DNA of 64,000 bases. Origin: a virus. Below, in pieces: positions 589 through 55,817 of this stretch. Below the pieces are notes generated by a model. The model ran no database searches and had not been told where the DNA came from. It saw nothing but the letters and a program-made list of their open reading frames with translations. The stretch spans positions 1 to 64,000 of IMG/VR virus record IMGVR_UViG_3300036792_000218; one strand, given 5' to 3'. A program made the translations under genes and the position numbers. The first letter of the stretch is position 1. Each line of letters begins with the position of its first letter.

Positions 589-621
589 GACAACATTATA
601 GAGACAGCATAGTCTTGTCAA
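589..621 (-). promoter_or_regulatory. Leftward promoter/operator P1 of a seven-copy family
   Basis: On the minus strand, TTGACA (616-621) is separated by 17 bp from TAATGT (593-598). Two inverted 9-bp arms overlap the two boxes (GACAAGACT, 13 bp, AATGTTGTC). The TSS is expected in the conserved GTAAG just downstream. The leader GTAAGG..CACCGCTACCAAGGGGG is nearly identical to that of P3. It drives the genes at 555 and below. The TGA stop of the upstream gene lies inside the -35 box. Confidence 0.8.
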
Positions 622-836
622 TTTGAACACGCCGGAAGGTTGGACCGTGCCCGCCACCTGGATCGAGACCACCGAACTACCCCTCGACCAGCTGCAACGG
701 CTGGCATGACGGCGAGGGTGGCGAGCAGGTCGGCGGCGGTGTCGGGGCCGAGTTCGCCCCGGCCGGCCAGGTCGCGGACGGCGGCCTCGACGTTGGCGGG
801 GACCGTGGGCTCTTGGGTGCTTCCGGTGCTGCTCAT
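618..836 (-). CDS. Hypothetical 72-residue protein ending inside promoter P1
   Basis: An ATG start at 834-836 follows the DUF6884 gene by 20 bp, so the two probably share a transcript. The first 45 residues (MSSTGSTQEPTVPANVEAAV...) look like a short helical protein. The last 25 are Arg/Trp/Ser-rich, and the stop codon is the TGA of the TTGACA of promoter P1. The C-terminus may therefore be a recent read-through tail. No family is recognised. Confidence 0.55.
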   Translation of the reverse strand: MSSTGSTQEPTVPANVEAAVRDLAGRGELGPDTAADLLATLAVMPAVAAGRGVVRWSRSRWRARSNLPACSN

Positions 837-855
837 GTCGTTCTCCTGTCGGTTG

Positions 856-1323
856 TCAGGCGGCGGTGACGATGCTGTTGACGTGGCGCTGCTCGCCGAT
901 CCCGGCGGTGCCCTCGTAGACGTCCTGGACCCACACGTCCAGGGTGCGGAGCGCGTCGTCGAGGACGGCGAGGTAGGTGCGGGGGAGCATCCCGTACACC
1001 TGGTGGCCGTGCTCGATGCCGAGCGCTTCGGCCTGGTCGGCGATCGTGCCGGCGGTGACGCTGCCGGGCTGGCCCATCCGCAGGTCGTACGGTGCGATCG
1101 CCTCGTCGAGGGTGATCAGCCCGTGGAGGGCGGACAGGACCAGGATCCGGGTAGGCGTTCCGTTCGCGTTGCACCAGGCTGCCTCGGTTTCGGCTGCGGC
1201 GAGCGTGTGGCGGAACATGGGGCCGGTGTAGAGGTCGCGGGCCGGCGCGGGGCGGTCCTGCTTGGCCGCCCCGCAGGGGATCACGTAGGTGATGGTGGCC
1301 TGGTTCCCGTTAACGTCGCTCAC
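856..1323 (-). CDS. DUF6884 family protein
   Basis: This 155-residue protein carries the hallmarks I associate with DUF6884/YaaA-like phage proteins: VIPCGAAK near the N-terminus, RDLYTGPMFR, then LSALHGLI and a PYDLRM segment. Members are small single-domain proteins of uncertain biochemistry, often near nucleotide-metabolism or DNA-modification genes. The GTG start (1321-1323) lies about 7 bp from the -10 box of promoter P2, so the mRNA is probably leaderless, unlike the other six operons of the family. The next gene (836-618) follows after 20 bp. Confidence 0.8.
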   Translation of the reverse strand: MSDVNGNQATITYVIPCGAAKQDRPAPARDLYTGPMFRHTLAAAETEAAWCNANGTPTRILVLSALHGLITLDEAIAPYDLRMGQPGSVTAGTIADQAEALGIEHGHQVYGMLPRTYLAVLDDALRTLDVWVQDVYEGTAGIGEQRHVNSIVTAA

Positions 1324-1326
1324 AAG

Positions 1327-1359
1327 GACAACACTATCAGAACTCGTGAGCGTTGTCGC
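1327..1359 (-). promoter_or_regulatory. Leftward promoter/operator P2 of the seven-copy family
   Basis: The minus-strand -35 is GCGACA (1354-1359), the weakest of the set, with 17 bp to TAGTGT (1331-1336). The inverted arms are GACAACGCT and AGTGTTGTC, 13 bp apart. The start codon of the DUF6884 gene lies at the expected transcription start, so the message should be leaderless. Confidence 0.75.
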
Positions 1360-1360
1360 T

Positions 1361-1900
1361 TTAAAGTCCGGCGTTTCCCGAGGTCACCCACGCCACCGCC
1401 TCGTCAACCGGCACCCCAGGCCGCGCCCCCTCCGACCCCGCCGGAACCACCTCGCCCGCCGCGTAGAACCGCACCGGGAACGACCCGCCGCGCCCCGCCT
1501 GCGTCACCCACGTGTACACCGTCTGCGGCCGGAACGACCCCGGCACCAGCCCCCGCTCCGCCAGCACCGCCCGGAACTGGTACGGGCTGCACACCCCGGC
1601 CGGGAACGGCGACCCCGCCGCCTTCCGCCGGACGGCAACCGGGCCCGGCCCGGTGACCGCCGGCCCCGCAAGCCCGGCCACCGGGCGCGGCAGCGGCCGC
1701 ACCGCGAGCCTCGCCACCGTCCGGTTCAGCGGAGGCTGCTTACCGAGCACGTGCCCCGACTCGTGGCACGGGCACACCCACACCTTGACCGCCGCGGCCG
1801 ACCCGTTCTGTACCGTCTCCGGGCACAGGACGTGATCCCCCGTCACGCAGAACCCGCACAGGTGCCCGCCCGCCACCATCACTGCCTTCAACGTCGCCAT
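1361..1900 (-). CDS. Zinc-binding putative DNA-binding protein, paralogue of the next gene upstream
   Basis: In this 179-residue protein the N-terminal 60 residues carry a Cys/His cluster (CGFC, H..C, CPCHESGH) that looks like a zinc site. The C-terminal 70 residues contain QTVYTWV, FPVRFY and RPGVPVDEAVAWV. These match the C-terminus of the 221-residue protein at 1971-2636 (QKVYNWV, FPVRHV, RPGVPLTEALAWY). The shared domain resembles an excisionase-like winged helix, but that is inference. It lies 70 bp downstream of its paralogue and is probably co-transcribed from P3. Confidence 0.7.
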   Translation of the reverse strand: MATLKAVMVAGGHLCGFCVTGDHVLCPETVQNGSAAAVKVWVCPCHESGHVLGKQPPLNRTVARLAVRPLPRPVAGLAGPAVTGPGPVAVRRKAAGSPFPAGVCSPYQFRAVLAERGLVPGSFRPQTVYTWVTQAGRGGSFPVRFYAAGEVVPAGSEGARPGVPVDEAVAWVTSGNAGL

Positions 1901-1970
1901 CGCCGTTTCCCCTTGTCCGATGAAAGAGGCCCGCGCCGGGCGGCGCGGGCCGTTGCCCTCAGGTCCGCGC

Positions 1971-2636
1971 TTACTTCGCGCCGTGGTGCTCCGCGTACCA
2001 GGCCAGCGCCTCGGTGAGCGGGACGCCCGGCCGGGTCTCGCCGGGGATCTTCACCGCGTGGACCGCGCCGTCGGCGCCGACGTGGCGGACCGGGAACGAC
2101 TTGGAGCCGACCCAGTTGTAAACCTTCTGGGTGGACAGCGCCGGGCCGGCCAGTCCCTCACGGACGAGGTAGTGGCGGAACGCGATCGGGGTGATCATCC
2201 CCTCGGGGAAGTCGGCCGGGGCGTCCTTGGCGTCCTGCGCGGGGCCGGTGGCCTGCGCGGGCCGCTTGGTCCGGGGCTTCGCCGGGGTGTCCTCCTGCGC
2301 GGGGGCGGGGTCCTCGGTGGGCTCGTCCTCGGTCGCCTCGCCGGCGTCCTCGGTGATGTCCACGTGGCGGGTCTCCGCGATCACGACCACGTTGCCGTCG
2401 GGTGCGACTGCCGCGATGGTCGCGCCGTCCTGGTCCGCTGCGGTCTCGGTGTCGGCTTCGGGCTCGCCCGCTTCCGCCTGCGCGAGGATCTCGGCGATCT
2501 CGGCGCTGGCCGCTTCCATCCGGCGTCCGAAGGTGCGGACGGACATGCCGAGCGCTTCGGCTGCGCGGCTCTTGTTGCCGTCGGCGGCGGTGAGGGCTTC
2601 GGCGATCTGGGTGGCGGTGGCGGTGGTGGCGGTCAT
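1971..2636 (-). CDS. Putative DNA-binding protein with Fis-type helix-turn-helix
   Basis: In this 221-residue protein, residues about 8-40 (IAEALTAADGNKSRAAEALG, then MSVRTFGRRM) match the Fis/HTH_8 helix-turn-helix pattern. An acidic Ala/Glu/Pro-rich linker of about 90 residues follows. The C-terminal domain (YNWVGSKSFPVRH, RPGVPLTEALAW) is shared with the protein at 1361-1900. It is the first gene after promoter P3, with an AAGGGGG site before ATG 2634-2636. A two-domain regulator fits, and autoregulation at the P-family operators is possible but untested. Confidence 0.75.
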   Translation of the reverse strand: MTATTATATQIAEALTAADGNKSRAAEALGMSVRTFGRRMEAASAEIAEILAQAEAGEPEADTETAADQDGATIAAVAPDGNVVVIAETRHVDITEDAGEATEDEPTEDPAPAQEDTPAKPRTKRPAQATGPAQDAKDAPADFPEGMITPIAFRHYLVREGLAGPALSTQKVYNWVGSKSFPVRHVGADGAVHAVKIPGETRPGVPLTEALAWYAEHHGAK

Positions 2637-2671
2637 TGTGTTTCCCCCTTGGTAGCGGTGTTCCTTACAAA

Positions 2672-2704
2672 GACAACACTATCTATGGTGACCAGTGTTG
2701 TCAA
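2672..2704 (-). promoter_or_regulatory. Leftward promoter/operator P3 of the seven-copy family
   Basis: The minus strand reads TTGACA (2699-2704), 17 bp, TAGTGT (2676-2681). The inverted arms GACAACACT and AGTGTTGTC are perfect, with 13 bp between them. TTTAAG lies directly upstream of the -35 and GTAAGG at the expected start. It drives the HTH gene at 2636 and its paralogue. Confidence 0.85.
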
Positions 2705-2790
2705 CTTAAAGACGCCGACACGCCGGCCAGAAAACAGAACCGGGCGGCACCCCCGCAGGAGCACCACCCGGCCAGGCCGAGCCAACCGCG

Positions 2791-3192
2791 CTACCCGGCG
2801 TCACCCGCCATCCGCGCCGAGCAGCCCGCCGTGTCCCGGCACGCCACGTTCCCCGCCGGGTTGAACTGCTCAAGCGTCCCGCCGTCCCCGGTCGTGCCCT
2901 CCACCCCGCAGTACGAGCACGCGGGCAGCGCCTCCGCGACGATGACCAGAACGTCGACCATGGTGTCCGACCGCAGGTGCGCGACCACCGGGCGGGGCTC
3001 GCCCCCGGCCGTGTACCAGGTGCACATCCACACTTCGTTCCCGAACGACGTGCCCACCTTCCGGTCCAGGTAGCGGATGCGGCCGGCGGGACGGGCCAGG
3101 ATCATGCCGGGCTTCAGTTCCCGTGCCGGGCACTGCGAGCCGCGCACCCGCATCAAGGGCGGCGCGGTGGTTTCGGTCTCGGTGGCGGTCAT
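2791..3192 (-). CDS. Hypothetical protein with C-terminal zinc site
   Basis: The start is the ATG at 3190-3192, preceded by GAGGGGGAACC; the longer frame back to 3240 would overlap the upstream gene. In this 133-residue product, the middle contains RELKPGMILARP, a phrase common in small beta-barrel actinophage proteins. The C-terminus has CSYCG and CRDTAGC, a likely zinc ribbon. It is the third gene after promoter P4. Its role is unknown. Confidence 0.65.
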   Translation of the reverse strand: MTATETETTAPPLMRVRGSQCPARELKPGMILARPAGRIRYLDRKVGTSFGNEVWMCTWYTAGGEPRPVVAHLRSDTMVDVLVIVAEALPACSYCGVEGTTGDGGTLEQFNPAGNVACRDTAGCSARMAGDAG

Positions 3193-3236
3193 GTGGTTCC
3201 CCCTCGTGTTTGTGGTCGGGCTGGTCAGCGCGCGCC

Positions 3237-3518
3237 TCACGCGCGCGGGAGGCCGATGCGGTCGGGCATGTACGTGGAGAGTTGCAGGCCGTAGCCGTTG
3301 ACGTCGTTCCAGTCCATGCAGTAGTCGGTGAAGCTCGCCATGGTGGCGGTCTCGATCCAGGTGCGGATGTACTTGCGCCGGTAGGCCTCGCGGCTGGCCA
3401 CGTCGGGGAAGATCAGCCAGATATTCGCGAGGCCGTGGGCGTCCGTGCCGGTGCCGAGGGTGATGGTGCCCTCGGGTACGTCGGCGAGGGCGCTGGCGAT
3501 CGTGGTCACAGTTGGCAT
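3237..3518 (-). CDS. Hypothetical 93-residue protein
   Basis: The start is ATG at 3516-3518, 28 bp downstream of the preceding gene. The product (MPTVTTIASALADVPEG...) contains a Tyr/Arg/Trp-rich centre (YRRKYIRTWIE) and is otherwise unremarkable: no transmembrane segment, Cys cluster or recognised family. It is the second gene of the P4 operon. Confidence 0.6.
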   Translation of the reverse strand: MPTVTTIASALADVPEGTITLGTGTDAHGLANIWLIFPDVASREAYRRKYIRTWIETATMASFTDYCMDWNDVNGYGLQLSTYMPDRIGLPRA

Positions 3519-3545
3519 CGTGTTGCCCTTCGTGGTCGTGGCCTG

Positions 3546-3758
3546 TTAGCTGCCGGTGACGAGGCGGACTGAGTCGACGTCAACGGTGCGGGACGCGACG
3601 GGAGTCCGGCCGTCCTGGCTGTAGGCGATGCGGTTCTCGGTCCAGTAGTGGAGGGTGACGCGGGTGTCGTCGCCGCCGTCGACCCACCGCAGGTCGACGG
3701 TGTCGCCGATCAGGGCGGTTTCGCGGGTGAGCTCCTGGCCGTTGCGGCGGGTGTCCAT
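3546..3758 (-). CDS. Hypothetical 70-residue beta-rich protein
   Basis: Two in-frame ATGs exist, at 3782 and 3758. The second has a good GGAGG five bases upstream and is preferred. The first would be almost leaderless relative to promoter P4. The sequence (RWVDGGDDTRVTLHYW...) suggests a small beta barrel. No family is recognised. It is the first gene of the leftmost-facing operon adjacent to the terminase genes. Confidence 0.6.
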   Translation of the reverse strand: MDTRRNGQELTRETALIGDTVDLRWVDGGDDTRVTLHYWTENRIAYSQDGRTPVASRTVDVDSVRLVTGS

Positions 3759-3793
3759 GGGTGCCTCCGGTGTGATCGCCATCGCCTTACAAA

Positions 3794-3826
3794 GACAACA
3801 CTACCAAAGTCAATGAGTGTTGTCAC
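3794..3826 (-). promoter_or_regulatory. Leftward promoter/operator P4, divergent from the late operon
   Basis: The minus-strand -35 is GTGACA (3821-3826), with 17 bp to TAGTGT (3798-3803). The inverted arms GACAACACT and AGTGTTGTC are perfect, 13 bp apart. It lies in the divergent gap between the leftward operon and the rightward terminase genes, so a protein bound here could affect both directions. Confidence 0.8.
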
Positions 3827-3849
3827 CTTAAACACGGCGGGGGTGAGCA

Positions 3850-4356
3850 ATGCCGCGACGCCGGTCCTCCGCGACCATGGAACGCGACGCCAAGGCCTAC
3901 GACCTGTTCCGCCGCGGCCTCAGCTACCGGCAGATCGGCACCGAACTCGGCGTCAGCCACCAGGCCGCATTCGAAGCGGTCCGCCGCGCCGCGAAAGACA
4001 ACGCCGCCAACCCGCTCGAACAAGCCGAGGCACGCCAGGCCGCACTCGACCGGCTGCAGGACTACCGGCGGCACGTTCTCCGGGTCCTCACCGGAAAGCA
4101 CTACGTCGTGTCCCAGGGCGGCCACATCGTGCTCGGCCCGGACAACAAGCCGCTCATCGACACCGACCCGGTACTCAGGGCCGTCGACCGGCTGGTCAAG
4201 ATCGACCAGGAAGACAGCAGGCTCCGCGACCTGTACCCGGCGGCCAAGGCCCGCGTCGAGGTCATCACCGAGGACGCGGTAGACGCCGAACTGGCCACGC
4301 TGGCGAGGCAGGTAGCCGAGAACGATGCCCGCGCCGCTGATACTGGCACCGGCTGA
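3850..4356 (+). CDS. Putative terminase small subunit
   Basis: This 168-residue protein lies directly upstream of, and overlaps by 32 bp, the terminase large subunit. Residues about 17-45 (YDLFRRGLSYRQIGTELGVS) form a helix-turn-helix of the kind small terminases use to bind cos or pac. A coiled-coil-like segment (LEQAEARQAALDRLQDY) follows. GGGGGTGAGCA precedes the ATG. Assignment rests on the HTH and position. The packaging site is probably nearby, but I see no clear cos. Confidence 0.7.
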   Translation: MPRRRSSATMERDAKAYDLFRRGLSYRQIGTELGVSHQAAFEAVRRAAKDNAANPLEQAEARQAALDRLQDYRRHVLRVLTGKHYVVSQGGHIVLGPDNKPLIDTDPVLRAVDRLVKIDQEDSRLRDLYPAAKARVEVITEDAVDAELATLARQVAENDARAADTGTG

Positions 4357-5899
4357 GAAACTGCAGCGGCTCGCCGAGCTGCGCGAGCGCCTGCGGCTGC
4401 AGGAAGCCGAAAAGCTCCGCAAGACCGACCCGTTCGCGAAACTCGGATTCGCCCCGAACCCCGGCCCGCAGACCCGGTTCCTGTCACTGCCCGACGAGAA
4501 CATCGACGTCCTGTTCGGCGGGGCCGTCGGCGGCAGCAAGTCGACGTCGCTGCTCATGTACGCGATCCGCGCGTGCACCAGGTACCCAGGACTTCAGGCG
4601 TTCTGGTTCCGCCGTACCTTCCCCGAGCTTGAGCACTCCGTGGTCCGCCTCCTGGGCCGCTACGGGTTCGCCAGGGCGCTCGGCTGCCGGTGGCGGGCCG
4701 ACAAGCACGAGCTCCGGTTCCCCAACGGGTCGACGCTGACGTTCGCCCACGCGAAGAACGTCAAAGAGGCCACCGCGTTCCTGTCCGCCGAGATCAACCT
4801 GCTGCTGATCGACGAGCGGACCACGCTGCCGCCCGACGTCGTCGACCTCCTGTACACCCGCATCCGCACCGGTGTACCCGGTGTGCCCGTGCTCGGCTGC
4901 CGCAGCGCCACCAACCCCGGCGACGTCGGCCACTCACGGGTCCTGACCGACTACATCGACGCGACCGGCCACGGTGAGCGTGAGATCACCGACGACAACA
5001 ACCGCCGCCGCATCTTCATCCAGTCGAGGATCGGGGACACGCCCCAGCTCGGCGCCGACTACCTGAAGAACCTCGCGGGCCTGCCGGAAAAGCTCCGTAA
5101 GGCCTACCTGGAGGGCGACTGGACCGTGTTCGCCGGGCAGGTGTTCGACGAGTGGCGGCACGCCCGGCACGTCGTCAAGCCGTTCACGCTCCCCGAGTCG
5201 TGGAAACGGTACTCGGGCACCGACTGGGGCTTCGCCGCCCCCTGGTGCACCCTGTGGCTCGCGGTCGACGAGGACGGCCGCGTCTACGTGTACCGGGAGC
5301 TGTACGCGGCGCAGGTCGGCGAGACGCAGCAGGCGCAGCGGATCGTCGAAGCGGAGGCCGGCGAGCAGGTCGCCGTCCGGTACGCGGACGACGCCATGTG
5401 GGCCACCCGCGGCGAGCTCAAGAGCGTCGCCGACGTCTACGCGGAAAACGGCTGCCACCTGACCAAGGCGGGGAAGGGCCCTGACTCGCGGATCGCCCGC
5501 GTGCAGCGGATGCACACCTACCTCGGTGAGGCGCCCGCCTGCCCGTCGCACCGGGCGCAGGGGTGGGAGACGTGCCCGAAAGTCCACGTGTTCCCCGTCT
5601 GCGCGAACCTGATCCGGACCCTGCCGACGCTCCCGCACCCGACGACGGGCAACCCGGAAGACGTCGACACGAACGCCGAAGATCACGCGTACGACGCGCT
5701 CACCTATGCCCTGGTGAACCTCGGCACCGGCCCGGTGTTCATCCTTCCCGACCTGCCCGCCGCGCAGCTGACCGAAGGCGTCGAGGCGCTGCAGCAGGTG
5801 GGCGCGTTCGCCCGCCGGCCCGACCCGAACGCACCCGAGCGCGACCCGGACGACGACGAGGCCCCGACGGGCATGACGCAACGCGCCCCATGGGCCTGA
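4325..5899 (+). CDS. terL: Terminase large subunit (packaging ATPase/nuclease)
   Basis: This 524-residue protein is the motor that translocates DNA into the prohead. The ATPase domain has a Walker A-like GGAVGGSKS near residues 65-73 and Walker B LLLIDE near 159-164. The C-terminal RNase H-like nuclease domain begins around 297 with YSGTDWGF, continues through YADDAMW and ends with EDHAYDALTYAL, giving the expected acidic residues. The length is normal for siphovirus terminases. The start overlaps the small-subunit gene, and the portal follows after 20 bp. Confidence 0.93.
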   Translation: MPAPLILAPAEKLQRLAELRERLRLQEAEKLRKTDPFAKLGFAPNPGPQTRFLSLPDENIDVLFGGAVGGSKSTSLLMYAIRACTRYPGLQAFWFRRTFPELEHSVVRLLGRYGFARALGCRWRADKHELRFPNGSTLTFAHAKNVKEATAFLSAEINLLLIDERTTLPPDVVDLLYTRIRTGVPGVPVLGCRSATNPGDVGHSRVLTDYIDATGHGEREITDDNNRRRIFIQSRIGDTPQLGADYLKNLAGLPEKLRKAYLEGDWTVFAGQVFDEWRHARHVVKPFTLPESWKRYSGTDWGFAAPWCTLWLAVDEDGRVYVYRELYAAQVGETQQAQRIVEAEAGEQVAVRYADDAMWATRGELKSVADVYAENGCHLTKAGKGPDSRIARVQRMHTYLGEAPACPSHRAQGWETCPKVHVFPVCANLIRTLPTLPHPTTGNPEDVDTNAEDHAYDALTYALVNLGTGPVFILPDLPAAQLTEGVEALQQVGAFARRPDPNAPERDPDDDEAPTGMTQRAPWA

Positions 5900-5919
5900 C
5901 CCGTGCCGGGAGGTACTGA

Positions 5920-41408: not shown

Positions 41409-42896
41409 ATGAAGGGCAGCGTTTACCGGCAGTGCTTCTGCCGTGACCCTCAGACGAAGCGGCGCTACAGGCGCGGCAAGTGCCCCGACTGGGGCAAGCG
41501 CAGCCACGGCAGGTGGTACTTCAAGTACGACGCCCCGGCCGCTCCGGGCGAGAGCCGGCGGCGTCCCGAGACCGGCCCGTTCGGCACCAAGAAGGAAGCC
41601 GATGAAAAGCTGGCCAAGGCGCTCGCCGAGGCGGGGACGGGCGTCGCCCTGGCCGACCGCTCGCTGAAGGTCGGCCCCTACCTGCTCGCCTACCAGGCGG
41701 GCAAGCGGAACCTGAAGGACAGCACCCGCGCGACCGACGACGAGGCGTTCCGCCTGTACTGGATTCCCGCGCTCGGGTCACTGCGGCTGGCCGAGCTGCG
41801 GGACCACCACGTCGGCCAGGTCCTCACCGCCATGAGCCAGGTGAACCGGCCGCTGCCCGACGGCGGGGAGCCGTCGGAGATGCTTCGCCGCATGACCGCC
41901 GCGCGTGCCGACGACGAGCGGCGCGAGCTGCCCGCCGGCGAGAAGCGGCACAAGAAGTCCGCCAAACCGCTGTCGCCGGCGCGGGTCGAGCGGATGTTCG
42001 CCCCGTTCCGGGCCGCGATGAACGCCGCGGTGAGGACGAAGAAGATCGGGCTCAGCCCGTGCACCGGTGTCGAGCTCGAACGGGCGCGCAAGGAGCTGGC
42101 GCTGGCCTGGACGCCCGCCCGTGAGGCGAAGTTCCGCGCCCAGCTGGCGAAGCGGGTCACGGCGGCTGAGAAGGCCGCCCCGGCGGGCCGGGTGGTGACG
42201 ACGGTCCAGCGGCAGGCGCTGTGGGCGGCGAGGGACCTGCGGCCCGGCAAGGTCATGGTGTGGCTGCCGGCGCACGCCGGCACCTTCCTCGACTACGTCG
42301 ACGTCGCGCGGGAACGGCTCGCGGCGCTGTTCGCGGTGGCGTGCTACTGCGGTCTGCGCCGCGACGAGATCACCGGCCTGAGGTGGGCTGAGGTCGACGT
42401 CGGCGAGGGCGTGATCTGGGTGCGGGAAACCGGGTCGGGCAGCGGGCCGAAGTCGAACGCGGGCACGCGGCCCGTCCCGATGGCGGCGGTCGTCAGGGAC
42501 GCGCTGGCGGCGTGGGCCGAGGTGCAGGACCTCGAGCGGAGCGTCCGCGCGTCGGAGTGGCCTGATACCGACCTGGTGTTCACGCACGAGACGGGGCTGC
42601 CGCTGAGCGGCCAGTGGGTGAGTACCCGGTTCGAGGTGCTGGCGTACCGGTCGGGTATGCCGCCGGTGCGGTTCCATGACCTGCGGCACGGCACCGCGTC
42701 GATCTTGAAGGCGTCGGGGGCTGATTCGAAGATGATCGCCGCGGTGCTCGGGCACGCCCGGTCGGACTTCACTGACCGGGTGTACGTGACGCTGTTCCCC
42801 GAGGTCCAGGCGGCGGCTGCGGAGGCCGCCGCCGCGGTGGTGCCGCGCAAGAGCCGCATGCCGGGCGAAAGCACGCCGGGCGGGTCTGCGGTCTGA
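41409..42896 (+). CDS. int: Tyrosine integrase
   Basis: This 495-residue protein starts at ATG 41409; the longer frame begins in the regulatory gap. The N-terminus (MKGSVYRQCFCRDP, RRGKCPDWGKRSHG) is a Cys-containing arm-binding region of actinobacterial integrases. A core-binding domain follows, then the catalytic domain with CGLRRDEITGLRW (Arg near 315), FHDLRHGTAS (His/Arg near 422) and RVYVTLFP (Tyr near 458). A non-standard insertion lies between core-binding and catalytic parts. It integrates at the tRNA-Ser core 130 bp downstream. Confidence 0.92.
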   Translation: MKGSVYRQCFCRDPQTKRRYRRGKCPDWGKRSHGRWYFKYDAPAAPGESRRRPETGPFGTKKEADEKLAKALAEAGTGVALADRSLKVGPYLLAYQAGKRNLKDSTRATDDEAFRLYWIPALGSLRLAELRDHHVGQVLTAMSQVNRPLPDGGEPSEMLRRMTAARADDERRELPAGEKRHKKSAKPLSPARVERMFAPFRAAMNAAVRTKKIGLSPCTGVELERARKELALAWTPAREAKFRAQLAKRVTAAEKAAPAGRVVTTVQRQALWAARDLRPGKVMVWLPAHAGTFLDYVDVARERLAALFAVACYCGLRRDEITGLRWAEVDVGEGVIWVRETGSGSGPKSNAGTRPVPMAAVVRDALAAWAEVQDLERSVRASEWPDTDLVFTHETGLPLSGQWVSTRFEVLAYRSGMPPVRFHDLRHGTASILKASGADSKMIAAVLGHARSDFTDRVYVTLFPEVQAAAAEAAAAVVPRKSRMPGESTPGGSAV

Positions 42897-48920: not shown

Positions 48921-48944
48921 CAGGTTTCCTTTGCTGTGGCGGGT

Positions 48945-48972
48945 GGCCCCGCAGGCGGTTGCCTGCGGGGCC
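48945..48972 (-). other. Intercistronic hairpin H1
   Basis: GGCCCCGCAGGC and GCCTGCGGGGCC form a perfect 12-bp stem with a 4-base loop. It lies between the stop of the 101-residue gene and the ribosome-binding site of the next. No U-run follows. Confidence 0.7.
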
Positions 48973-48978
48973 CGGTGG

Positions 48979-49284: not shown

Positions 49285-49319
49285 CGTGTCCCCCGGTGGT
49301 CTCGGTAGATGCTTACGGA

Positions 49320-49352
49320 GACAACATTATCCGTTCATAATAATGTCGTCAA
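49320..49352 (-). promoter_or_regulatory. Leftward promoter/operator P5 of the seven-copy family
   Basis: The minus strand reads TTGACG (49347-49352), 17 bp, TAATGT (49324-49329). The arms are GACGACATT and AATGTTGTC, 13 bp apart. It lies 5 bp after the stop of the ParB-like gene, in a CCCTGA-ATAAG context like P6. Confidence 0.8.
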
Positions 49353-49357
49353 CTTAT

Positions 49358-50863
49358 TCAGGGCGTGTCGGCGAACCCTTCCCCGTCCTCTCCGGTCCCG
49401 GCGGCGGCCTCGGCGGCGGTGCGGGCTGCGACCTCGGCGGCGTCCACGGCGGCGGCCTCGGCGACCGCTTCGGCCTTGGCCCGCACGGCGTCGACTACGG
49501 CCTGCTCGCACGGCGCCAGGTCGTATCCCCACCCGGCGAGCGCAGTCAGGTACTCAGCCGATGCGCGCTGCGGGGTGCGCCACGTCATGGTGTCGGCGGT
49601 CAGCCACTCGCACGCCCCTATCACCAGCGCGAAGGTGACCAGGTGGGCGCGCTGCTCGGACGCCCCGGTGAGGCTGTCGGCGAGCGGTGACTTGTAGTCG
49701 CCGTAGCCGCTGTAGCCGCTGTCGGCCTCGATGCCGCCGAGCAGGGCCCGCGCGGTCTTGTGCCTGCCGCCGCTCATGCTGGTGAACGACCGGATCAGGT
49801 AGCTGTCCGCCGCGGCGAGCGCCTTGACGGTGAACAGGGCGGCACCCGCGGGCAGGTCCTTGCCGTGCAGCAGCACGTCTGTCAGCCACCGCTGGCGGAC
49901 GGTCGTCGCGGACCGCCAGGCGCTGTTACCCTCGCGTACCCGCCTCTTGTCCTCGGGTGACGTCTCGGGCTGCCCGCTGTCGTGGCGCTTCTTGTGGCCG
50001 TTGGCCTTCGGGTCGGTGCAGTACCACGACTCGTCGACGTACCTGTTGTCGCCGTGGCCCATCACGTACAGGACAACTACGTTGCCCGGGCAGTCCTTGT
50101 GGCTTGCGGGGTCGAGCCGGTTCCCGTCAGTGTCCACCCAGTAATTCAGCCCGTTCTCGTAGTGGATTGCGTCGTCGCTGACCTTGATGCCCTGCCCGTC
50201 CAGCTCGGCGGCTCGGGCGGCCTTCATGGCCCGCTCGGTGCGCTTGTCGCGGCACTGCTGAACCTGGTGGTCGAACTGGCCGGGCTGGTCGACGGCGGTC
50301 ACGGCGAGGTGCTTGGCGATCGCGGGCTCGTCGTCGAACTCGGCGATCGCCGCGGCCTGGAGCATGTCGAGCGGGTACTGGTGGGCCAGGGTGCGCGCGG
50401 TGTCGGAGGCGTGAGTCTTGCGGGCGGCGGCGATCTCGGTCCGCTCGTAGCCGGTCATTTTCTTGACCGTGACGGCGTTCGCGCCGAGGTCGAATAGCTG
50501 GGCGACGGCGGCGGCGCGGTCGGCCGTGGTCAGGCCCTCGCGGTTCTCGTTCTCGTCCCATTGCTCGAGGATCCGCGCGATCTCCGCTTCTGTGGTTCCG
50601 GCGGTGCCCTCGACGACGACGGCCGGGACCTGGCATCCGACCTCGATGCAGGCCAGCCGGCGGCGTGCCCCGAACCGCAAGACGAGTTCGCCGTCCGGGG
50701 TCCGGAGGACGCCGATCGGCTGCCGGACCCAGTTCGCGCGGATGGAGTCGATGAGTTCCTTGCTGGGCTGCGCGTCGCGGATGTTGCCCACGACGGTGAT
50801 CGCCGCGGGGTCGAGCACTTCGAGCGTCATCGCGGGTGTCTTCACTGATGCGGTCTTCGGCAT
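49358..50863 (-). CDS. ParB-like nuclease/CTPase-domain protein
   Basis: This 501-residue protein has an N-terminal ParB domain: ITVVGNIRDAQPSKELIDSI, RQPIGVLRTPDGELVLRFGA then RRRLACIEVG (the GxRRxxA loop), LEQWDENENREGLTTADRAA. A middle HTH region follows (ANAVTVKKMTGYERTEIAAA). The second half is long and Ala-rich with a zinc-free helical domain and is not typical of chromosomal ParB. No ParA is visible. Roles in DNA binding, regulation or partition are all possible. Confidence 0.82.
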   Translation of the reverse strand: MPKTASVKTPAMTLEVLDPAAITVVGNIRDAQPSKELIDSIRANWVRQPIGVLRTPDGELVLRFGARRRLACIEVGCQVPAVVVEGTAGTTEAEIARILEQWDENENREGLTTADRAAAVAQLFDLGANAVTVKKMTGYERTEIAAARKTHASDTARTLAHQYPLDMLQAAAIAEFDDEPAIAKHLAVTAVDQPGQFDHQVQQCRDKRTERAMKAARAAELDGQGIKVSDDAIHYENGLNYWVDTDGNRLDPASHKDCPGNVVVLYVMGHGDNRYVDESWYCTDPKANGHKKRHDSGQPETSPEDKRRVREGNSAWRSATTVRQRWLTDVLLHGKDLPAGAALFTVKALAAADSYLIRSFTSMSGGRHKTARALLGGIEADSGYSGYGDYKSPLADSLTGASEQRAHLVTFALVIGACEWLTADTMTWRTPQRASAEYLTALAGWGYDLAPCEQAVVDAVRAKAEAVAEAAAVDAAEVAARTAAEAAAGTGEDGEGFADTP

Positions 50864-50899
50864 TGAGTGTCCTGTCTGATCGGTGTGTGTTGTGGTGGT

Positions 50900-50927
50900 G
50901 GCCCCGCGGGCGGGTGCCTGCGGGGCC
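50900..50927 (-). other. Intercistronic hairpin H2
   Basis: GGCCCCGCGGGC and GCCTGCGGGGCC pair with one wobble-type mismatch around a GGGT loop. It lies between the 177-residue gene and the ParB-like gene. The sequence is nearly identical to H1 and H3. Confidence 0.65.
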
Positions 50928-50936
50928 GTGGGGTGG

Positions 50937-51470
50937 CTAGTCGAGCTGGACGTGGGCGGTGTTGCCGGTGATCGCGGCGACGTGCCCTACGTACGGGATT
51001 CCGGGCTCTGCGTCGGTGACCTCGATCTCGACGCGGTGACCGACGGCGACCGGCGCGGGGCCCTCGATCGGCATGTCGAGCCAGCCGGTCCCGCCGGCCT
51101 CGATGTCGGCCTGCTCGTGGCGCTCAAGCTCGACGCCGGTCATGTTCACGGCCAGGTGGTGCGGGACGGGCTGCTCGGACAGTTCAGTGATGATCAGGCT
51201 CTGGGGCTGCTCTGGGGTCTTCTCCTGGTCCCCTCCGGCCGCCAGGAGGAGCTTCGCCGGGTTGATCGTGACCGTCCGCACGGCGGCGGTGCGCTTCTTC
51301 GCGGTGGGCGCTCCGTTCATGCGCTGCAGGCGGCCGGTAACCGTCACCGCCCCGGTTGCCTTGCTCACGCTGGCGTGGGTGACCCGGAGCCGGTAGGGCA
51401 GCTTCCTGACCCAGTCCGCGCCGGCGGGAACGATGATCTCGACTCCCGGCTCGATGTCCTCGGGTGACAT
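50937..51470 (-). CDS. Hypothetical 177-residue beta-rich protein
   Basis: The start is ATG 51468-51470 after GGAGGACCAA. Two beta domains are suggested (LPYRLRVTHASVSKATGAVT, and APVAVGHRVEIEVTDAEPGI). No Cys cluster or membrane helix. It lies between hairpins H2 and H3. No family is recognised. Confidence 0.6.
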   Translation of the reverse strand: MSPEDIEPGVEIIVPAGADWVRKLPYRLRVTHASVSKATGAVTVTGRLQRMNGAPTAKKRTAAVRTVTINPAKLLLAAGGDQEKTPEQPQSLIITELSEQPVPHHLAVNMTGVELERHEQADIEAGGTGWLDMPIEGPAPVAVGHRVEIEVTDAEPGIPYVGHVAAITGNTAHVQLD

Positions 51471-51529
51471 TTGGTCCTCCTGTCGCTTGGTGCTTACGGT
51501 GGCCGGGCCGCCCGGTCTGCTTGGGGACG

Positions 51530-51558
51530 GGCCCCGCAGGCAGGTCGCCTGCGGGGCC
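51530..51558 (-). other. Intercistronic hairpin H3
   Basis: GGCCCCGCAGGC and GCCTGCGGGGCC form a perfect 12-bp stem with a 5-base loop. It lies between the stop of the 73-residue gene and the ribosome-binding site of the next. Confidence 0.7.
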
Positions 51559-51564
51559 GGGTAG

Positions 51565-51786
51565 CTAGCGCTTGATGGTCACTTCGGCGCCACGGGTGCC
51601 GTTGCCGTCGCCGATCTCACCGAACGCGGGCGAGCCCTGGATGCTGGTCAGGACGTCGCTGCGGACGTTCTCGACTACCTCGCGGGCGTAGAGCTTGCCG
51701 CCGGCGGCGGGTAGCCCGTACTTGTTGGCGTACTGCTGGACTTGCTGCTCGGTCATTTCGATGACGATCGGGACCTGGATTCGCAC
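51565..51786 (-). CDS. Hypothetical 73-residue protein
   Basis: The start is ATG 51784-51786. The N-terminus (MRIQVPIVIEMTEQQVQQYA) is a strand followed by a helix, then YAREVVENVRSDVLTSIQGS and a strand (AEVTIKR) ending in a basic tail. It is like small dimeric phage proteins, but the family is unknown. It is flanked by hairpins H3 and H4. Confidence 0.6.
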   Translation of the reverse strand: MRIQVPIVIEMTEQQVQQYANKYGLPAAGGKLYAREVVENVRSDVLTSIQGSPAFGEIGDGNGTRGAEVTIKR

Positions 51787-51814
51787 GGGGTTTCTCCTTC
51801 GGCGATCGGGGGCG

Positions 51815-51842
51815 GGCGCCGCCGGCGGGTGCCGGCGGCGCC
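51815..51842 (-). other. Intercistronic hairpin H4
   Basis: GGCGCCGCCGGC and GCCGGCGGCGCC form a perfect 12-bp stem with a GGGT loop, as in H2, but a different stem sequence. It lies between the 163-residue gene and the next. Confidence 0.65.
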
Positions 51843-51849
51843 GGGGTGG

Positions 51850-52341
51850 CTAGTAGGCGGCTAGCAGGGCGTCAAGGTCGGCTTCGGTCGGGACCGAGTT
51901 GCCGTACAGGCCGCCGTCGAAGACCACGGGGATTTCGAGCTTGCCGGCGTTCTTGCGGAATGAGCGGTAGCGCTTGAGCGCGGTTTCGTTGCGGGTCCCG
52001 GTCACGCCGTTGGAGGTGAGGTGGAAAGTGATACTCACGTGGCCGGTTGTCCAGCCGTGGTAGTAGCGGCCGCCGTCGAGGTGGGTGCGCGTGGTTTCGG
52101 GGGTGTAGCGGGGGTCGTCGCTTTCGTGGTCGAGGGCGTCGTGTCCGGTGAGGGTGTTCGCGCGGGCGCCGGTGCTCTTGGGGAACCGGGCGGCGGCTTC
52201 CCTGGCCTGCTCGATCGTCTCGGTGATCAGGGTCGCGTGGATGCTGAAGCCGCCGTCGCGGTAGGTGACGGCGGTGATGTGGTACGCGGCGCTGTCGATC
52301 CAGTCCTGGTAGTAGCCGGTCCGCCTGTCGTTCGTGTCCAT
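51850..52341 (-). CDS. Hypothetical 163-residue protein, first gene after P6
   Basis: The start is ATG 52339-52341 after AGGGGGAACACG. The core (AYHITAVTYRDGGFSIHATL, YYHGWTTGHVSITFHLTSNG) is beta-rich with several His/Tyr. A helical linker (EQAREAAARFPKSTGARANT) lies between. No family is recognised. Confidence 0.6.
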   Translation of the reverse strand: MDTNDRRTGYYQDWIDSAAYHITAVTYRDGGFSIHATLITETIEQAREAAARFPKSTGARANTLTGHDALDHESDDPRYTPETTRTHLDGGRYYHGWTTGHVSITFHLTSNGVTGTRNETALKRYRSFRKNAGKLEIPVVFDGGLYGNSVPTEADLDALLAAY

Positions 52342-52375
52342 CGTGTTCCCCCTGTGGTCCCCGGTTGCTTACAGA

Positions 52376-52408
52376 GACAACATTATGTGTGACGGTTAAA
52401 GATGTCAA
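52376..52408 (-). promoter_or_regulatory. Leftward promoter/operator P6 of the seven-copy family
   Basis: The minus strand reads TTGACA (52403-52408), 17 bp, TAATGT (52380-52385). The upstream arm has diverged (GACATCTTT), while the downstream arm AATGTTGTC is intact. It starts a few bases after the stop of the 123-residue gene (CCCTGATTAAG). Confidence 0.8.
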
Positions 52409-52413
52409 CTTAA

Positions 52414-52785
52414 TCAGGGCGTGTCGCCAAGCAAGTCCCCCTGCACCAGCGCCGCCCCGCCCCCGCCAGCGGCAGCCGGCGCCGGGTCGCGATCGGGAAA
52501 CCAGCCAAGCCGGAGACCCCGCTCCCACCTCGACGCCAGCCGCGCGTCAAGCGCCCCGTCAAGGCACAGCGCGAGCTCGTAATCGAGCAGCTTCTCCCGG
52601 CCGACCGGAATGTCAGCCGCCACCAGGGAACAGCGCGCGCAGCCCGCCCGGTGCGCCCAGAACCGCGCCGCGGCCTGGTCGCGGGCCGCCACGGCGTGCG
52701 ACAGGGACGGCTGGTAAGCCGGGTTCGGCACCGTCACCGGGGCGCGCACGGGAGCCGCGTCGAACAGCGCCCCGTCGTCAGCCAC
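52414..52785 (-). CDS. Hypothetical 123-residue protein
   Basis: The start is GTG 52783-52785 (MADDGALFDAAPVRAP), overlapping the previous stop region; the longer frame is antisense noise. The middle (WAHRAGCARCSLVAADIPVG) has a CxxC and the protein ends GDLLGDTP. No family is recognised. Its stop codon is immediately upstream of P6. Confidence 0.55.
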   Translation of the reverse strand: MADDGALFDAAPVRAPVTVPNPAYQPSLSHAVAARDQAAARFWAHRAGCARCSLVAADIPVGREKLLDYELALCLDGALDARLASRWERGLRLGWFPDRDPAPAAAGGGGAALVQGDLLGDTP

Positions 52786-53407
52786 GGCCAGCCGTGCCGT
52801 CCGCCAGCGCGGCCAGCTCGCCGGACACCTCGGCCTCATGCGCCTGGCCGATCCTGGTGGCGCTCCGGGTCGCCCTCGCGGCGTCAGCGAGGTCCGCGGT
52901 GATGTCGACGTGGCCGGCGCGGCCAAGCGGGACGCCGTCGAGCTGGTCCAGCACCTGCAGCGCCGTCCGCGCCTCGCGCAGCGCCGACTCGGCGTCCCCC
53001 AGGGCGGTCAGCAGCCGGCGTGTCAGTTCCTGCTGGCTGGTCACCGTGGCGAGCCACCCGCGCGCGTAGTCGCAGTCTTCGCAGGCGGCGCACAGCTCGC
53101 AGACCTCGTGAGCGCAGATCTTGCCCTCATGCTTGCCGGCGAAGTGGGCGGCCCGGATCGCGCACGCACCGCAGGAGCAATCTCCGGGGTGGCCGGGTGC
53201 CTCGGTGCGGATGTGCTGGCGGGTGCCGCAGGACCACTCGGCCAGTAGCATCGACGGGTCGCTGACCCGGACGCCGTACCGGACGCAGGCGAGGGCGTCG
53301 GCGTGGGCCATCGCCGCCGGGTAACCGGGCGCGGGGTCCTGTGCTGTCTTCCACTCGCCGTCGGCGGTCATGCGGAAGGTGACCGTGTACAGGGTCGCGT
53401 CAGGCAT
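52778..53407 (-). CDS. Cys-rich 209-residue protein
   Basis: The N-terminal half has DCSCGACAIRAAHF and CAHEVCELCAACEDC, a zinc-binding region with about nine Cys. The C-terminal half is a long helix (LLTALGDAESALREARTALQ). N-terminal TLYTVTFRMTADGEWKTAQD looks like a strand pair. Likely a zinc-binding regulator or scaffold. It is coupled on both sides by short overlaps. Confidence 0.6.
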   Translation of the reverse strand: MPDATLYTVTFRMTADGEWKTAQDPAPGYPAAMAHADALACVRYGVRVSDPSMLLAEWSCGTRQHIRTEAPGHPGDCSCGACAIRAAHFAGKHEGKICAHEVCELCAACEDCDYARGWLATVTSQQELTRRLLTALGDAESALREARTALQVLDQLDGVPLGRAGHVDITADLADAARATRSATRIGQAHEAEVSGELAALADGTAGRG

Positions 53408-54209
53408 TGCCGGCGTCCTTCCGGTGCGTGTAGACGGAGATGAAGGAGCCCCGGTTGTCCGGGGTGTAGTAACGGCTGGCGATCTCGGTCAGCGCCTTGT
53501 CCATGGCGCGCCGCTCGGGACTGGCGATCGTCCACGTCGCCGGGGCGTTGTCGACGTGGATGTCGATCGAGGTCATCAGGGAGGCGTGCTCGCCCCGCAC
53601 GCGGATCTTGATGCCGTCGGGGCAGTGGGGCAGCGTCTTGCCGGCGAGGGCCGCCTTGATGTCGGCGCGGACCGCCTTGGCGGCTTCGGCGAGGGTGATG
53701 TCCGGGTACTTGAGCACGGGGGCGGGGCTGTCAGGTACGGCCGGGCCCGGCTTCGGCGCGGTGCCCTCGATCACGGCGCACGCCCGGCGTAGCTTGCGCA
53801 GGCCCGCCGCTGAGAGGGGAATGTCCAGGGCGGCGGCCAGCGCGTCCCGGTCCGCGGCGGTGAGGCCGCTGCCCTCGTCGTCGAGCAGCGGGTACAGCAG
53901 CGCGCGGGCCTCCGCGATCGCGCCGAGCGCCCTGCCGATGCGCCTGCCCGCGAGCCCGGCCAGCGCCTTCGCGGTCGCGGCGGGGTCGTCGCTCTCGCGT
54001 GCCTGGTACTCGGCGATGTCCAGTTCTGCCTTGTCGAGGACCGTGCGGGTCGCGTCGATGCCGTCGCGGTCGACCGTGACGGAAGGCAAGAGCAGCAAGT
54101 CATAGTCGCGGCGGGCCGCCCGGTTCGTCCGGGGGCGGTCCTCGGCGGACGGGTCGACGTCGGGCAGGTACCCGGCGAACTGCATGCGGTCAGGGTCGGT
54201 GGTGGTCAT
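53400..54209 (-). CDS. Protein with LPD29-like C-terminal domain
   Basis: This 269-residue protein has a long helical N-terminal half (AELDIAEYQARESDDPAATA). The C-terminal 90 residues (AVRADIKAALAGKTLPHCPD, then VRGEHASLMTSIDIHVDNAP) resemble LPD29, a domain found in phage and mobile-element polyvalent proteins, with a YTPDNRGSFISVYTHR end. Its function is unknown. It is coupled by overlaps in the P7 upstream operon. Confidence 0.65.
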   Translation of the reverse strand: MTTTDPDRMQFAGYLPDVDPSAEDRPRTNRAARRDYDLLLLPSVTVDRDGIDATRTVLDKAELDIAEYQARESDDPAATAKALAGLAGRRIGRALGAIAEARALLYPLLDDEGSGLTAADRDALAAALDIPLSAAGLRKLRRACAVIEGTAPKPGPAVPDSPAPVLKYPDITLAEAAKAVRADIKAALAGKTLPHCPDGIKIRVRGEHASLMTSIDIHVDNAPATWTIASPERRAMDKALTEIASRYYTPDNRGSFISVYTHRKDAGNA

Positions 54210-54532
54210 AGGTCGTACTCCTTCGACTGGGCGAGCATCTGGGCGAGGATCCGTTCGGTTTCGGCTTGGCGCCGCTGCGCTTCTGCGGCTTCAGCGGCGG
54301 CGTGGTCGGCGTCGGACAGTTCGCGGGACTCGACGGTGGCGAGGGCGTCAATGCGGAGCGTGGTCGACCCGCTCGCCCCGTCGGCGGCCCACACGAGGCG
54401 CACGTAGTCGCCGGGGGCGTGGAAGCCGTCCCACGGTTCATCTGTCAGCGACTCGACGCGGACGGGGCCGGTGTGCAGGCCGGGGACGGTGATCAGGTCA
54501 CCCTTGCGGGCAAGCTCGATGGTCTCGTTCAC
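54206..54532 (-). CDS. Hypothetical 108-residue protein
   Basis: The start is GTG 54530-54532 (MNETIELARKGDLITVPG), overlapping the previous stop (GTGA). A small beta-barrel-like N-terminal half (RVESLTDEPWDGFHAPGDYV) is followed by a charged coiled-coil tail (AEAAEAQRRQAETERILAQM). No family is recognised. Confidence 0.6.
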   Translation of the reverse strand: MNETIELARKGDLITVPGLHTGPVRVESLTDEPWDGFHAPGDYVRLVWAADGASGSTTLRIDALATVESRELSDADHAAAEAAEAQRRQAETERILAQMLAQSKEYDL

Positions 54533-54756
54533 AGGGCGCTCCCTAGCTGTGCGTCGATGCGGTGGTCGTCGAGGTCGCGTTGGACGCTCGCGCGGGTCGC
54601 GCCGCCGGTCTTGGATTCCCACTGGCCGCATGAGCAGGCGACGTCCCAGCCGGGCCAGGAGCCGGACATGGTGCTGGCGTGCGGGATCTTCTCGCGCGGG
54701 TACGCGGCGCTGCCGTCGCCCACCCACACGAACCAGCGGCCACGGTGGGCCTTCAT
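54529..54756 (-). CDS. Hypothetical 75-residue protein
   Basis: The start is ATG 54754-54756. The product contains two Trp/Cys segments (WPGWDVACSCGQWESKTGG) and a C-terminal helix (ASVQRDLDDHRIDAQL), reminiscent of small phage zinc proteins that pair a CxC with a basic helix. No family is recognised. Confidence 0.6.
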   Translation of the reverse strand: MKAHRGRWFVWVGDGSAAYPREKIPHASTMSGSWPGWDVACSCGQWESKTGGATRASVQRDLDDHRIDAQLGSAL

Positions 54757-54786
54757 GGTTTCGGGGTCACGAGCAGGTGCGGCATG

Positions 54787-55086
54787 TCAGGCCCCCGGCT
54801 TCCGGGCGGCCAGTTCAGCGGTCCGCGCCGCGTCGCACTCGGGGTGCATGTGGTCGTTCCGTGCGGTCTGAACGAGGGCTGACCGCTCGTCGCCGGGCTG
54901 GTAGCAGTAGGCGCAGACGGGGACCATCTGCCGGGCTTCCCTGGACGGCGGCCTGCTGTTGGGGTCGCTGGCGGCGGGGCTGGCTGCTACCTGGAGGCGG
55001 CGGAGGTGCGGCTTCGCGTTCAGTTCCGCCTCGGTGAAGAAACAGCCTGCGGCGATCTGCTGCTCTTCGGTGATGTCCCTGCGCAT
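54787..55086 (-). CDS. Hypothetical 99-residue protein with zinc site
   Basis: The start is ATG 55084-55086 after AAAGGAGCAACCCCG. The C-terminal half has VCAYCYQPGDERSA and HMHPECDAARTAELA, a CxxC/HxxxC pair suggesting zinc. It lies 30 bp downstream of the SWIM-domain gene. No family is recognised. Confidence 0.6.
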   Translation of the reverse strand: MRRDITEEQQIAAGCFFTEAELNAKPHLRRLQVAASPAASDPNSRPPSREARQMVPVCAYCYQPGDERSALVQTARNDHMHPECDAARTAELAARKPGA

Positions 55087-55116
55087 CGGGGTTGCTCCTT
55101 TCTGGCGTCGGGCGGT

Positions 55117-55518
55117 TCAGGCGGCGAACGGGAGGGCGAGCGGGCGGGGGGTGATCGCGATCACGAGGCGCAGGGCGCCGGCGTGCTTGCAGGGCTGCTC
55201 GTCGGCGGTGAGGCGCCCGACGCCGTGGCGGCAGTTGCACATGCCGTCGGGGGTGACGCGGTATGTGGCGTCGAAGTCGGTGCTGTCGACGATCCAGATT
55301 CCGGGGCGGCTGCTCGGGCGGACCGCGCCGAGTTCGACGATCTCGATTGCCTCGTCGACCTGGTCGTCGGACAGGCCTGCGAGGGCGGCGGACATCTTGC
55401 GCCAGCAGGTGGGGCCGTATCCGCGGCGCTTGCTAAGGGGGCTGGTGAGCTTGCGGCCGCATCCGGGGCGCTGGCAGCGGTGCTCGTCGGTTTCGGTGAT
55501 CGCGGTGGTGGTGGTCAT
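55117..55518 (-). CDS. DUF6011/SWIM zinc-binding protein
   Basis: In this 133-residue protein, the N-terminal CQRPGCGRKLTSPLSKRRGY and GPTCWRK match the DUF6011 zinc site. The C-terminal CNCRHGVGRLTADEQPCKHA is a SWIM finger (CxC...CxH). SWIM domains bind DNA or protein and occur near recombination genes. It is the first gene after promoter P7, with GGGGGAACCACCG before ATG 55516-55518. Confidence 0.78.
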   Translation of the reverse strand: MTTTTAITETDEHRCQRPGCGRKLTSPLSKRRGYGPTCWRKMSAALAGLSDDQVDEAIEIVELGAVRPSSRPGIWIVDSTDFDATYRVTPDGMCNCRHGVGRLTADEQPCKHAGALRLVIAITPRPLALPFAA

Positions 55519-55817
55519 CGGTGGTTCCCCCTGTGAGCGCCGTTGCTTACAAGGACAACATTATAGCTAGCTAACAGTGTTGTCAATTTAAATGGGCGTG
55601 TCGCGCGCCCCACGAGCACCGACAGCCAGAACACCTCCGCAACCTCCGCAACCTTCGCGCCGACCACCCGCTCCGCCCGCGCCAACTGCCACGCCGCGTC
55701 ACGCTCCCGCCACTCGACTACCGACCGCAGGTAAGCGCCCCACGCGGCCTGCTGCGCCCCCGCCACGCCCGCCTCCGCAGACCGGCACAAGCGCAGCAGC
55801 CCCTCGTCGCTGATCAC
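55515..55817 (-). CDS. Hypothetical 100-residue protein that reads through promoter P7
   Basis: The start ATG 55815-55817 overlaps the upstream stop (ATGA). The first 75 residues (MISDEGLLRLCRSAEAGVAG...) look genuine. The frame then passes through the whole P7 promoter and stops only at the start of the SWIM gene. At P5 and P6 the equivalent genes stop with CCCTGA just upstream of TTAAG; here that reads CCCATT, so the stop seems to have been lost by mutation. Confidence 0.55.
   Translation of the reverse strand: MISDEGLLRLCRSAEAGVAGAQQAAWGAYLRSVVEWRERDAAWQLARAERVVGAKVAEVAEVFWLSVLVGRATRPFKLTTLLASYNVVLVSNGAHRGNHR
55554..55586 (-). promoter_or_regulatory. Leftward promoter/operator P7 of the seven-copy family
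   Basis: The minus strand reads TTGACA (55581-55586), 17 bp, TAATGT (55558-55563). The arms are GACAACACT and AATGTTGTC, 13 bp apart, with GCTAGC in the centre. It drives the SWIM gene leftward and lies inside the 3' part of the preceding reading frame. Confidence 0.85.

What the first reader, a model, noticed from the sequence alone, without database searches (positions are those of the whole stretch)
589..55586. Seven-copy leftward promoter/operator family defines a phage-wide regulon
Copies at 589-621, 1327-1359, 2672-2704, 3794-3826, 49320-49352, 52376-52408 and 55554-55586 share a 31-bp inverted repeat (GACAACAYT, 13 bp, ARTGTTGTC) lying on a TTGACA-N17-TARTGT promoter. All face leftward and end in a conserved GTAAG start region. 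The arms are about 22 bp apart centre to centre (two turns). The downstream arm is nearly invariant; the upstream arm decays in P1, P5 and P6. One repressor or activator probably controls all the leftward operons.
Basis: partly seen in the sequence, partly recalled or inferred. Interest (0 to 1): 0.85.

Follow-up and report, generated by a model that had tools for sequence, protein, structure and literature searches.

The report
Multi-copy phage promoters with built-in operator
A probably temperate virus of an actinobacterium carries eleven near-identical gene switches, all pointing the same way, in which one short DNA word covers both contact points of the host's RNA polymerase, so that a single virus-specific protein could turn a whole set of small virus genes on or off together.

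Summary
All seven sites are exact, on the minus strand and far beyond chance. The window is part of a closed 92-kb phage record that holds four more full copies and one degenerate copy. Ten of the eleven lie 27-32 nt before a start codon; the eleventh begins on a GTG start codon (leaderless). Every near-match to the half-site in the whole record lies in these sites. Comparison separates two layers. The first is a shared 'chassis', TAnnnT-N6/7-GTAAGC. It recurs as multi-copy promoters in unrelated actinophages: Zukovirus, Microbacterium phage Quhwah (a published but unexplained motif) and uncultured relatives. The second is a phage-specific dyad, GACAACAYT-N13-ARTGTTGTC, whose word was found elsewhere only in one unrelated high-GC prophage. 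Most likely mechanism: host sigma-A promoters of early/establishment cassettes, shut off by one phage regulator that binds a half-site on -35 and a half-site on -10. The regulon is not 'all leftward operons'; several leftward blocks have no site. The regulator is unproven. The best candidate is the HTH gene at record 89744-90382, outside the window, rather than the three named genes. New variant of a known kind.

The parts
585..621 (-). P1: +1 G 585; downstream arm 589-597; -10 593-598; upstream arm 611-619; -35 616-621; drives gene 376-555 (5' leader 30 nt)
1323..1359 (-). P2: GCGACA -35, TAGTGT -10, +1 = GTG start codon of gene 856-1323 (leaderless, DUF6884)
2668..2704 (-). P3: perfect 9/9 arms; drives gene 1971-2636 (Fis-type HTH); terminator-like hairpin 2773-2738 just upstream
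3790..3826 (-). P4: perfect 9/9 arms; drives 3546-3758, then 3237-3509 and 2791-3192; divergent from the structural operon (TerL 4325-5899 +)
49316..49352 (-). P5: heads the leftward genes from 49284 down to about 45118 (operon extent inferred)
52372..52408 (-). P6: heads genes 52341 down to 49358 (last is ParB-like, phrog_6218)
55550..55586 (-). P7: heads genes 55518 down to 52414 (operon extent inferred)
856..1323 (-). Leaderless gene under P2; GTG at +1 supports the transcription start at the G of GTRAG
1971..2636 (-). Regulon gene with Fis-type HTH (PF02954, 2.2e-9) and a C-terminal domain shared with gene 1361-1900; secondary candidate regulator
41409..42896 (+). Tyrosine integrase: phage is probably temperate

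Best explanation
The sites are minus-strand promoters for the host's principal sigma factor (-35 near TTGACA, 17 bp, -10 TARTGT, start at the G of GTRAG), each driving a short leftward cassette of early/establishment genes. Over each lies a dyad operator whose one 9-bp word overlaps the -35 hexamer in one direction and the -10 in the other. One phage-encoded DNA-binding protein probably fills both half-sites, on the same DNA face two turns apart, excludes RNA polymerase, and so silences 11 transcription units together, in the prophage or after the early phase. Shown: the sites, their geometry, the absence of half-sites elsewhere, the constant leader length and the shared chassis. Inferred: transcription from them, binding, repression rather than activation, and the regulator's identity. 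The regulator is tentatively the HTH protein at record 89744-90382.
For: Eleven copies on one strand scoring far above null. Arms are conserved while the gap between them is near background, so each copy is held by selection rather than by recent duplication. The dyad score stands out (z 6.8), and the T at the inner end of the upstream arm is 11/11, where a promoter alone needs nothing. All 22 half-site matches (at most 1 mismatch) in 92 kb lie in these sites, 21 in the eleven full sites and 1 in the weak site 90398. Leader length is 27-32 nt in ten, 0 in one. Near-consensus hexamers suggest intrinsically strong promoters, which fits repression better than activation (inference). Prophage G452 carries AGCGTTGTC-N9-GACAACGCT-N13-AGTGTTGTC-N9-GACAACACT on a promoter; its two 27-bp palindromes differ symmetrically (C/G against T/A in both arms), as expected of protein recognition. 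The second gene behind it is a homologue of record gene 89744-90382 (phmmer 3.8e-9), which in this phage lies behind the degenerate site 90398.
Against: No transcription or binding data. The E. coli-type promoter scan calls none of the sites, because -10 is TARTGT rather than TATAAT; the reading rests on the actinobacterial TAnnnT rule (own knowledge). Within the phage, symmetric co-variation of the arms is weak (pair 14/30 agrees in 8 of 11). The candidate regulator's family is widespread in actinophages (phrog_597 in four of five members; this gene itself had no PHROG match), and in G016 it has no visible dyad nearby. Quhwah, a lytic phage with no annotated repressor (PMC7302621), has the same chassis in multiple copies, so multiplicity does not imply lysogenic repression.
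Confidence: 0.6

Rival explanations
1. The dyad is the site of an activator or of a phage-modified polymerase that turns these promoters on at one stage of infection.
For: A lytic phage without an annotated repressor has multi-copy promoters of the same chassis with its own conserved -35 region (Quhwah GATTAGAC); G030 likewise has its own (GGGCTTTAC).
Against: Hexamers are close to consensus and the dyad covers both of them, which favours exclusion of polymerase; an activator would usually sit upstream of or replace a poor -35.
Confidence: 0.2
2. There is no regulator: the arms are only a strong promoter consensus (TTGACA plus a conserved -10/discriminator), and the symmetry is incidental.
For: The downstream arm is partly chassis: KimJongPhill has TAATGTTGTCCTCGTAAGC with no upstream arm.
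Against: The upstream arm beyond -35 (ACAYT) is conserved across copies and mirrors the -10; Zukovirus copies with the same chassis lack it; the same half-site occurs as perfect palindromes in prophage G452.
Confidence: 0.1
3. A host transcription factor reads the dyad and links the regulon to host physiology.
For: AGTGTTGTC-N9-GACAACACT lies just upstream of a TetR-like gene in one genome of the Streptomyces order, and AACGTTGTC-N9-GACAACGTT in others.
Against: The phage spacing (N13, arms turned the other way) has no convincing match in 397 actinobacterial genomes; the host of this phage is not known.
Confidence: 0.08

Closest known systems
18-bp repeated motif of Microbacterium cluster EC and EI phages (PMC7302621)
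   Same: Multi-copy, one orientation, intergenic, 21-30 bp before starts; TAGACTATAGGTGTAAGC reads as -10 + 6 nt + GTAAGC
   Different: No GACAACAYT/ARTGTTGTC dyad; phages are lytic; the authors left the function open
Zukovirus (Streptomyces phages Zuko, KimJongPhill) small-gene promoters
   Same: TTGACA-N17-TAGNGT-N6/7-GTAAGC before small leftward genes; an orthologue of record gene 86724-88016 follows such a promoter in both
   Different: No dyad over -35/-10
L5/Bxb1/R4 repressor-stoperator systems (PMC9283540, PMC6550527, PMC10276819)
   Same: One regulator, many sites over the genome, oriented with transcription, operator in early promoters
   Different: Stoperators are 13-bp asymmetric and mostly outside promoters; here every site is a dyad on a promoter and no L5/R4-type repressor was detected
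Cluster O mycobacteriophage 17-bp dyads (Corndog, PMC4351075)
   Same: Many dyad sites plus several SigA-like leftward promoters
   Different: There the more than 30 dyads lie throughout the genome with no meaningful orientation, partly inside genes
phiC31 c repressor and its conserved inverted repeats (own knowledge)
   Same: One repressor, many palindromic sites linked to early promoters in a Streptomyces phage
   Different: No c homologue was detected here, and phiC31 lacks the GTAAGC arrays

Membership tests
L5-type repressor-stoperator system | Binding sites mostly away from promoters, acting on elongation | tested here: not met
   All half-sites lie in the 11 promoters and one degenerate site
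L5-type repressor-stoperator system | Asymmetric site bound by a monomer | tested here: not met
   Site is a 31-bp dyad in 11/11 copies; binding stoichiometry itself is not testable
L5-type repressor-stoperator system | L5/R4-like repressor encoded | tested here: not met
   phmmer with R4 gp29 finds no hit in six frames; single-sequence search, so a distant homologue could be missed
phiC31 c-repressor/CIR system | c repressor homologue encoded | tested here: not met
   phmmer with phiC31 c finds no hit at E<=1 in six frames; same limit as above
phiC31 c-repressor/CIR system | 17-bp CIR palindromes near early promoters | not tested
   CIR sequence known only from memory; not searched
Cluster EC-type repeated start-region motif (chassis) | TAnnnT-N6/7-GTAAGC repeated, one orientation, about 20-32 bp before start codons | tested here: met
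   11 copies with N7 (final base C in most), 27-32 nt leaders except one leaderless
Principal-sigma (HrdB/SigA-type) promoter | TTGAC-like -35, 16-18 bp, TAnnnT -10 | tested here: met
   17 bp in the aligned copies; the stricter E. coli-type scan does not call them
Principal-sigma (HrdB/SigA-type) promoter | Transcription start mapped | not testable with these tools
   No RNA data; the leaderless GTG only supports the position

The most novel reading that the evidence does not exclude
Actinophages share a modular early promoter: a common -10/start chassis (TAnnnT-N6/7-GTAAGC) copied before many small-gene cassettes, onto which each phage writes its own operator. In this phage the operator is one word used twice, once over -35 and once over -10, giving a compact genome-wide switch with a new specificity, read by an actinophage HTH family not previously known to us as a repressor.
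Probability: 0.35. Interest if true: 0.7.

Novelty: new variant of a known kind. Interest (0 to 1): 0.52.

Why it matters
It gives a testable promoter and operator for a whole regulon of unknown small genes (including a weak ArdC-like antirestriction candidate and a ParB-like protein), offers a promoter reading for a published but unexplained repeat of Microbacterium phages, and provides a sequence handle for finding early/establishment genes in actinophages: look for TAnnnT-N6/7-GTAAGC arrays.

Tried and rejected
Same dyad in near relatives: absent from the TerL-related records scanned and from 397 actinobacterial genomes apart from one chance-level match; viral-collection scans give mostly AT-rich chance hits plus G452. 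Other repeated promoter families in G013, G016, G021, G024, G031, G035: no AT-rich promoter-like repeat among the top over-represented words. Repeated leftward promoters upstream of TerL in other relatives: only L021. Regulon genes as baits (record 86724-88016, window 49358-50863, record 91050-91646) found no viral-contig relatives. L5/R4-like or phiC31-like repressor: none found. Host use of the chassis: pattern absent from seven host genomes, but the chance expectation is also near zero, so this is uninformative. Homologues of the 2636 HTH protein in 397 genomes: none. The G030 -35 region was examined for a dyad; only weak symmetry. Transcribed attenuator: rejected, since the arms lie upstream of the inferred start. 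Structure prediction was not used: a lone small HTH protein would have told little, and most family members came from records the tool does not accept.

Full report
Observation. The seven reported sites are real and exactly placed. The window is positions 1-64000 of a 92,369-bp virus record whose first and last 127 bases are identical, so the map closes into a circle. Scanning the whole record adds full copies at 88039, 89029, 89366 and 91674 and a degenerate copy at 90398; every copy is on the minus strand. Across the circular join the sites form two groups: nine, counting the degenerate one, in a leftward stretch from 3.8 kb through the join to 86.7 kb, and three at 49-55 kb. The PWM separates the eleven (60.7-71.7 bits; leave-one-out 52-65) from Markov-2 genomes (best 10.7).

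Anatomy (coding strand). TTYAA - TTGACA - ACAYT - N11 - (A) TARTGT - TGTC - YYT - GTAAG(C). Arms GACAACAYT and ARTGTTGTC are 13 bp apart, with 88 of 99 arm positions complementary. The gap has information near background while the arms, hexamers and start region are conserved, so the copies are old and each is maintained. Inner bases of the upstream arm mirror the -10, and outer bases of the downstream arm mirror the -35; each half-site word thus overlays one polymerase contact. Both orientations of ARTGTTGTC with up to one mismatch occur 22 times in 92 kb, 21 in the eleven sites and one in the degenerate site. Leaders are 27-32 nt in ten cases; at 1319 the conserved GTAAG is GTGAG and its GTG starts the DUF6884 gene 856-1323, a leaderless mRNA that supports the +1 position. 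Terminator-like hairpins precede some sites, but their number is within the shuffled expectation. A further element, GGCGTGTC in either orientation, lies 8-14 bp upstream of -35 at seven sites (7 of its 18 genomic copies).

Extent. Gene calls (a simple codon model) put 1 to about 10 genes behind each site. Leftward blocks at 38.0-41.2, 43.2-44.1, 56.0-63.5, 64.9-70.8 and 72.9-76.5 kb have no site, so the regulon is large but is not every leftward operon. The regulon includes a weak ArdC-N match (91050-91646; E 2.7e-4, just below Pfam's cutoff), a ParB-like protein and many unknown small proteins. A tyrosine integrase makes the phage probably temperate.

Two layers. Relatives found by TerL lack this dyad. 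But G030 (TerL 51%) has its own family of about ten promoters, GGGCTTTAC-nnn-GCTTAG...TAnnnT...GTAAGCC. Zuko and KimJongPhill have arrays TTGACA-N17-TAGNGT-...-GTAAGCAAGACCGA before small leftward genes, including the orthologue of record gene 86724-88016. Quhwah has TAGACTATAGGTGTAAGC, which is the published cluster EC motif of unclear function (PMC7302621). R4 and phiC31 lack such arrays. So TAnnnT-N6/7-GTAAGC is a shared chassis, and the GACAACAYT arm is the phage-specific part. In L021 (TerL 78%) two leftward promoters carry another dyad, ACCTAGT-N11-ACTAGGT.

Regulator. The half-site recurs in one unrelated high-GC prophage, G452, as two 27-bp palindromes that differ symmetrically (AGCGTTGTC/GACAACGCT and AGTGTTGTC/GACAACACT) on a promoter. 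Only three proteins of this phage have homologues in G452 at E<=1e-3. One, record 89744-90382, matches the HTH gene that is second behind that promoter. Homologues in L021 and G031 also stand behind dyad promoters; the one in G016 does not. Four of the five aligned members match phrog_597 'DNA binding protein'. This is suggestive only, because the family is widespread. Repression is preferred to activation because the hexamers are near consensus and covered by the dyad. No L5/R4-like or phiC31-like repressor was detected.

Comparison with the known. Phage-wide operator sets are a known kind (L5 stoperators, phiC31 CIRs, Cluster O dyads), and multi-copy start-region motifs have been reported in Microbacterium phages. 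What differs here is that every site is a dyad laid over both hexamers of a promoter, with no site outside promoters, and that the promoter chassis is shared by phages whose operators differ.

Limits. There are no RNA or binding data. Operon boundaries are inferred. The E. coli-type promoter scan does not call the sites. The host is unknown. Several comparisons rest on single uncultured records.

Noticed in passing
window:1-127 and record 92243-92369: Exact 127-bp direct terminal repeat: the record is circularly closed; the ORF at 3-119 is the start of gene 92014-92361, cut by the linearisation.
   Followed up: yes
L277-L279 (G045): The octamer GTTTAAAC occurs about 31 times in this 47-kb phage contig, two of them in the -35/-10 spacer of GTAAGC-type promoters: a possible palindromic stoperator system.
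   Followed up: partly
8-14 bp upstream of -35 at seven sites (e.g. window 2717-2724, 49362-49369, 52418-52425, 55595-55602): GGCGTGTC, in opposite orientations in the two site clusters; function unknown, perhaps a small hairpin before TTYAA.
   Followed up: partly
G030 record about 57195-57235 and 58935-58970 (L124 17195-17235, 18935-18970): A terminator-like hairpin's 3' arm and T-run (GGGGGCTTTAC) appear to double as the -35 region of the next promoter.
   Followed up: no
L370 position 1501: AGTGTTGTC-N9-GACAACACT 26 bp upstream of a TetR-like gene in a genome of the Streptomyces order.
   Followed up: partly
window:1361-1900 and 1971-2636: Adjacent regulon genes share a C-terminal domain.
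   Followed up: no
window:3546-3758 and record 88787-89005: First genes of two cassettes look like paralogues (MDTRxxGQxLxRxTAxxGDTVDxRW).
   Followed up: no
record 77408-81001: WhiB protein (PF02467) and a protein with an FtsK gamma domain (PF09397), plasmid-like functions, inside a phage with a full structural module.
   Followed up: partly
L157-L162 (G035): CCTCCGTGT repeated 20 times in a 115-kb relative, which also has a 127-bp terminal repeat.
   Followed up: no
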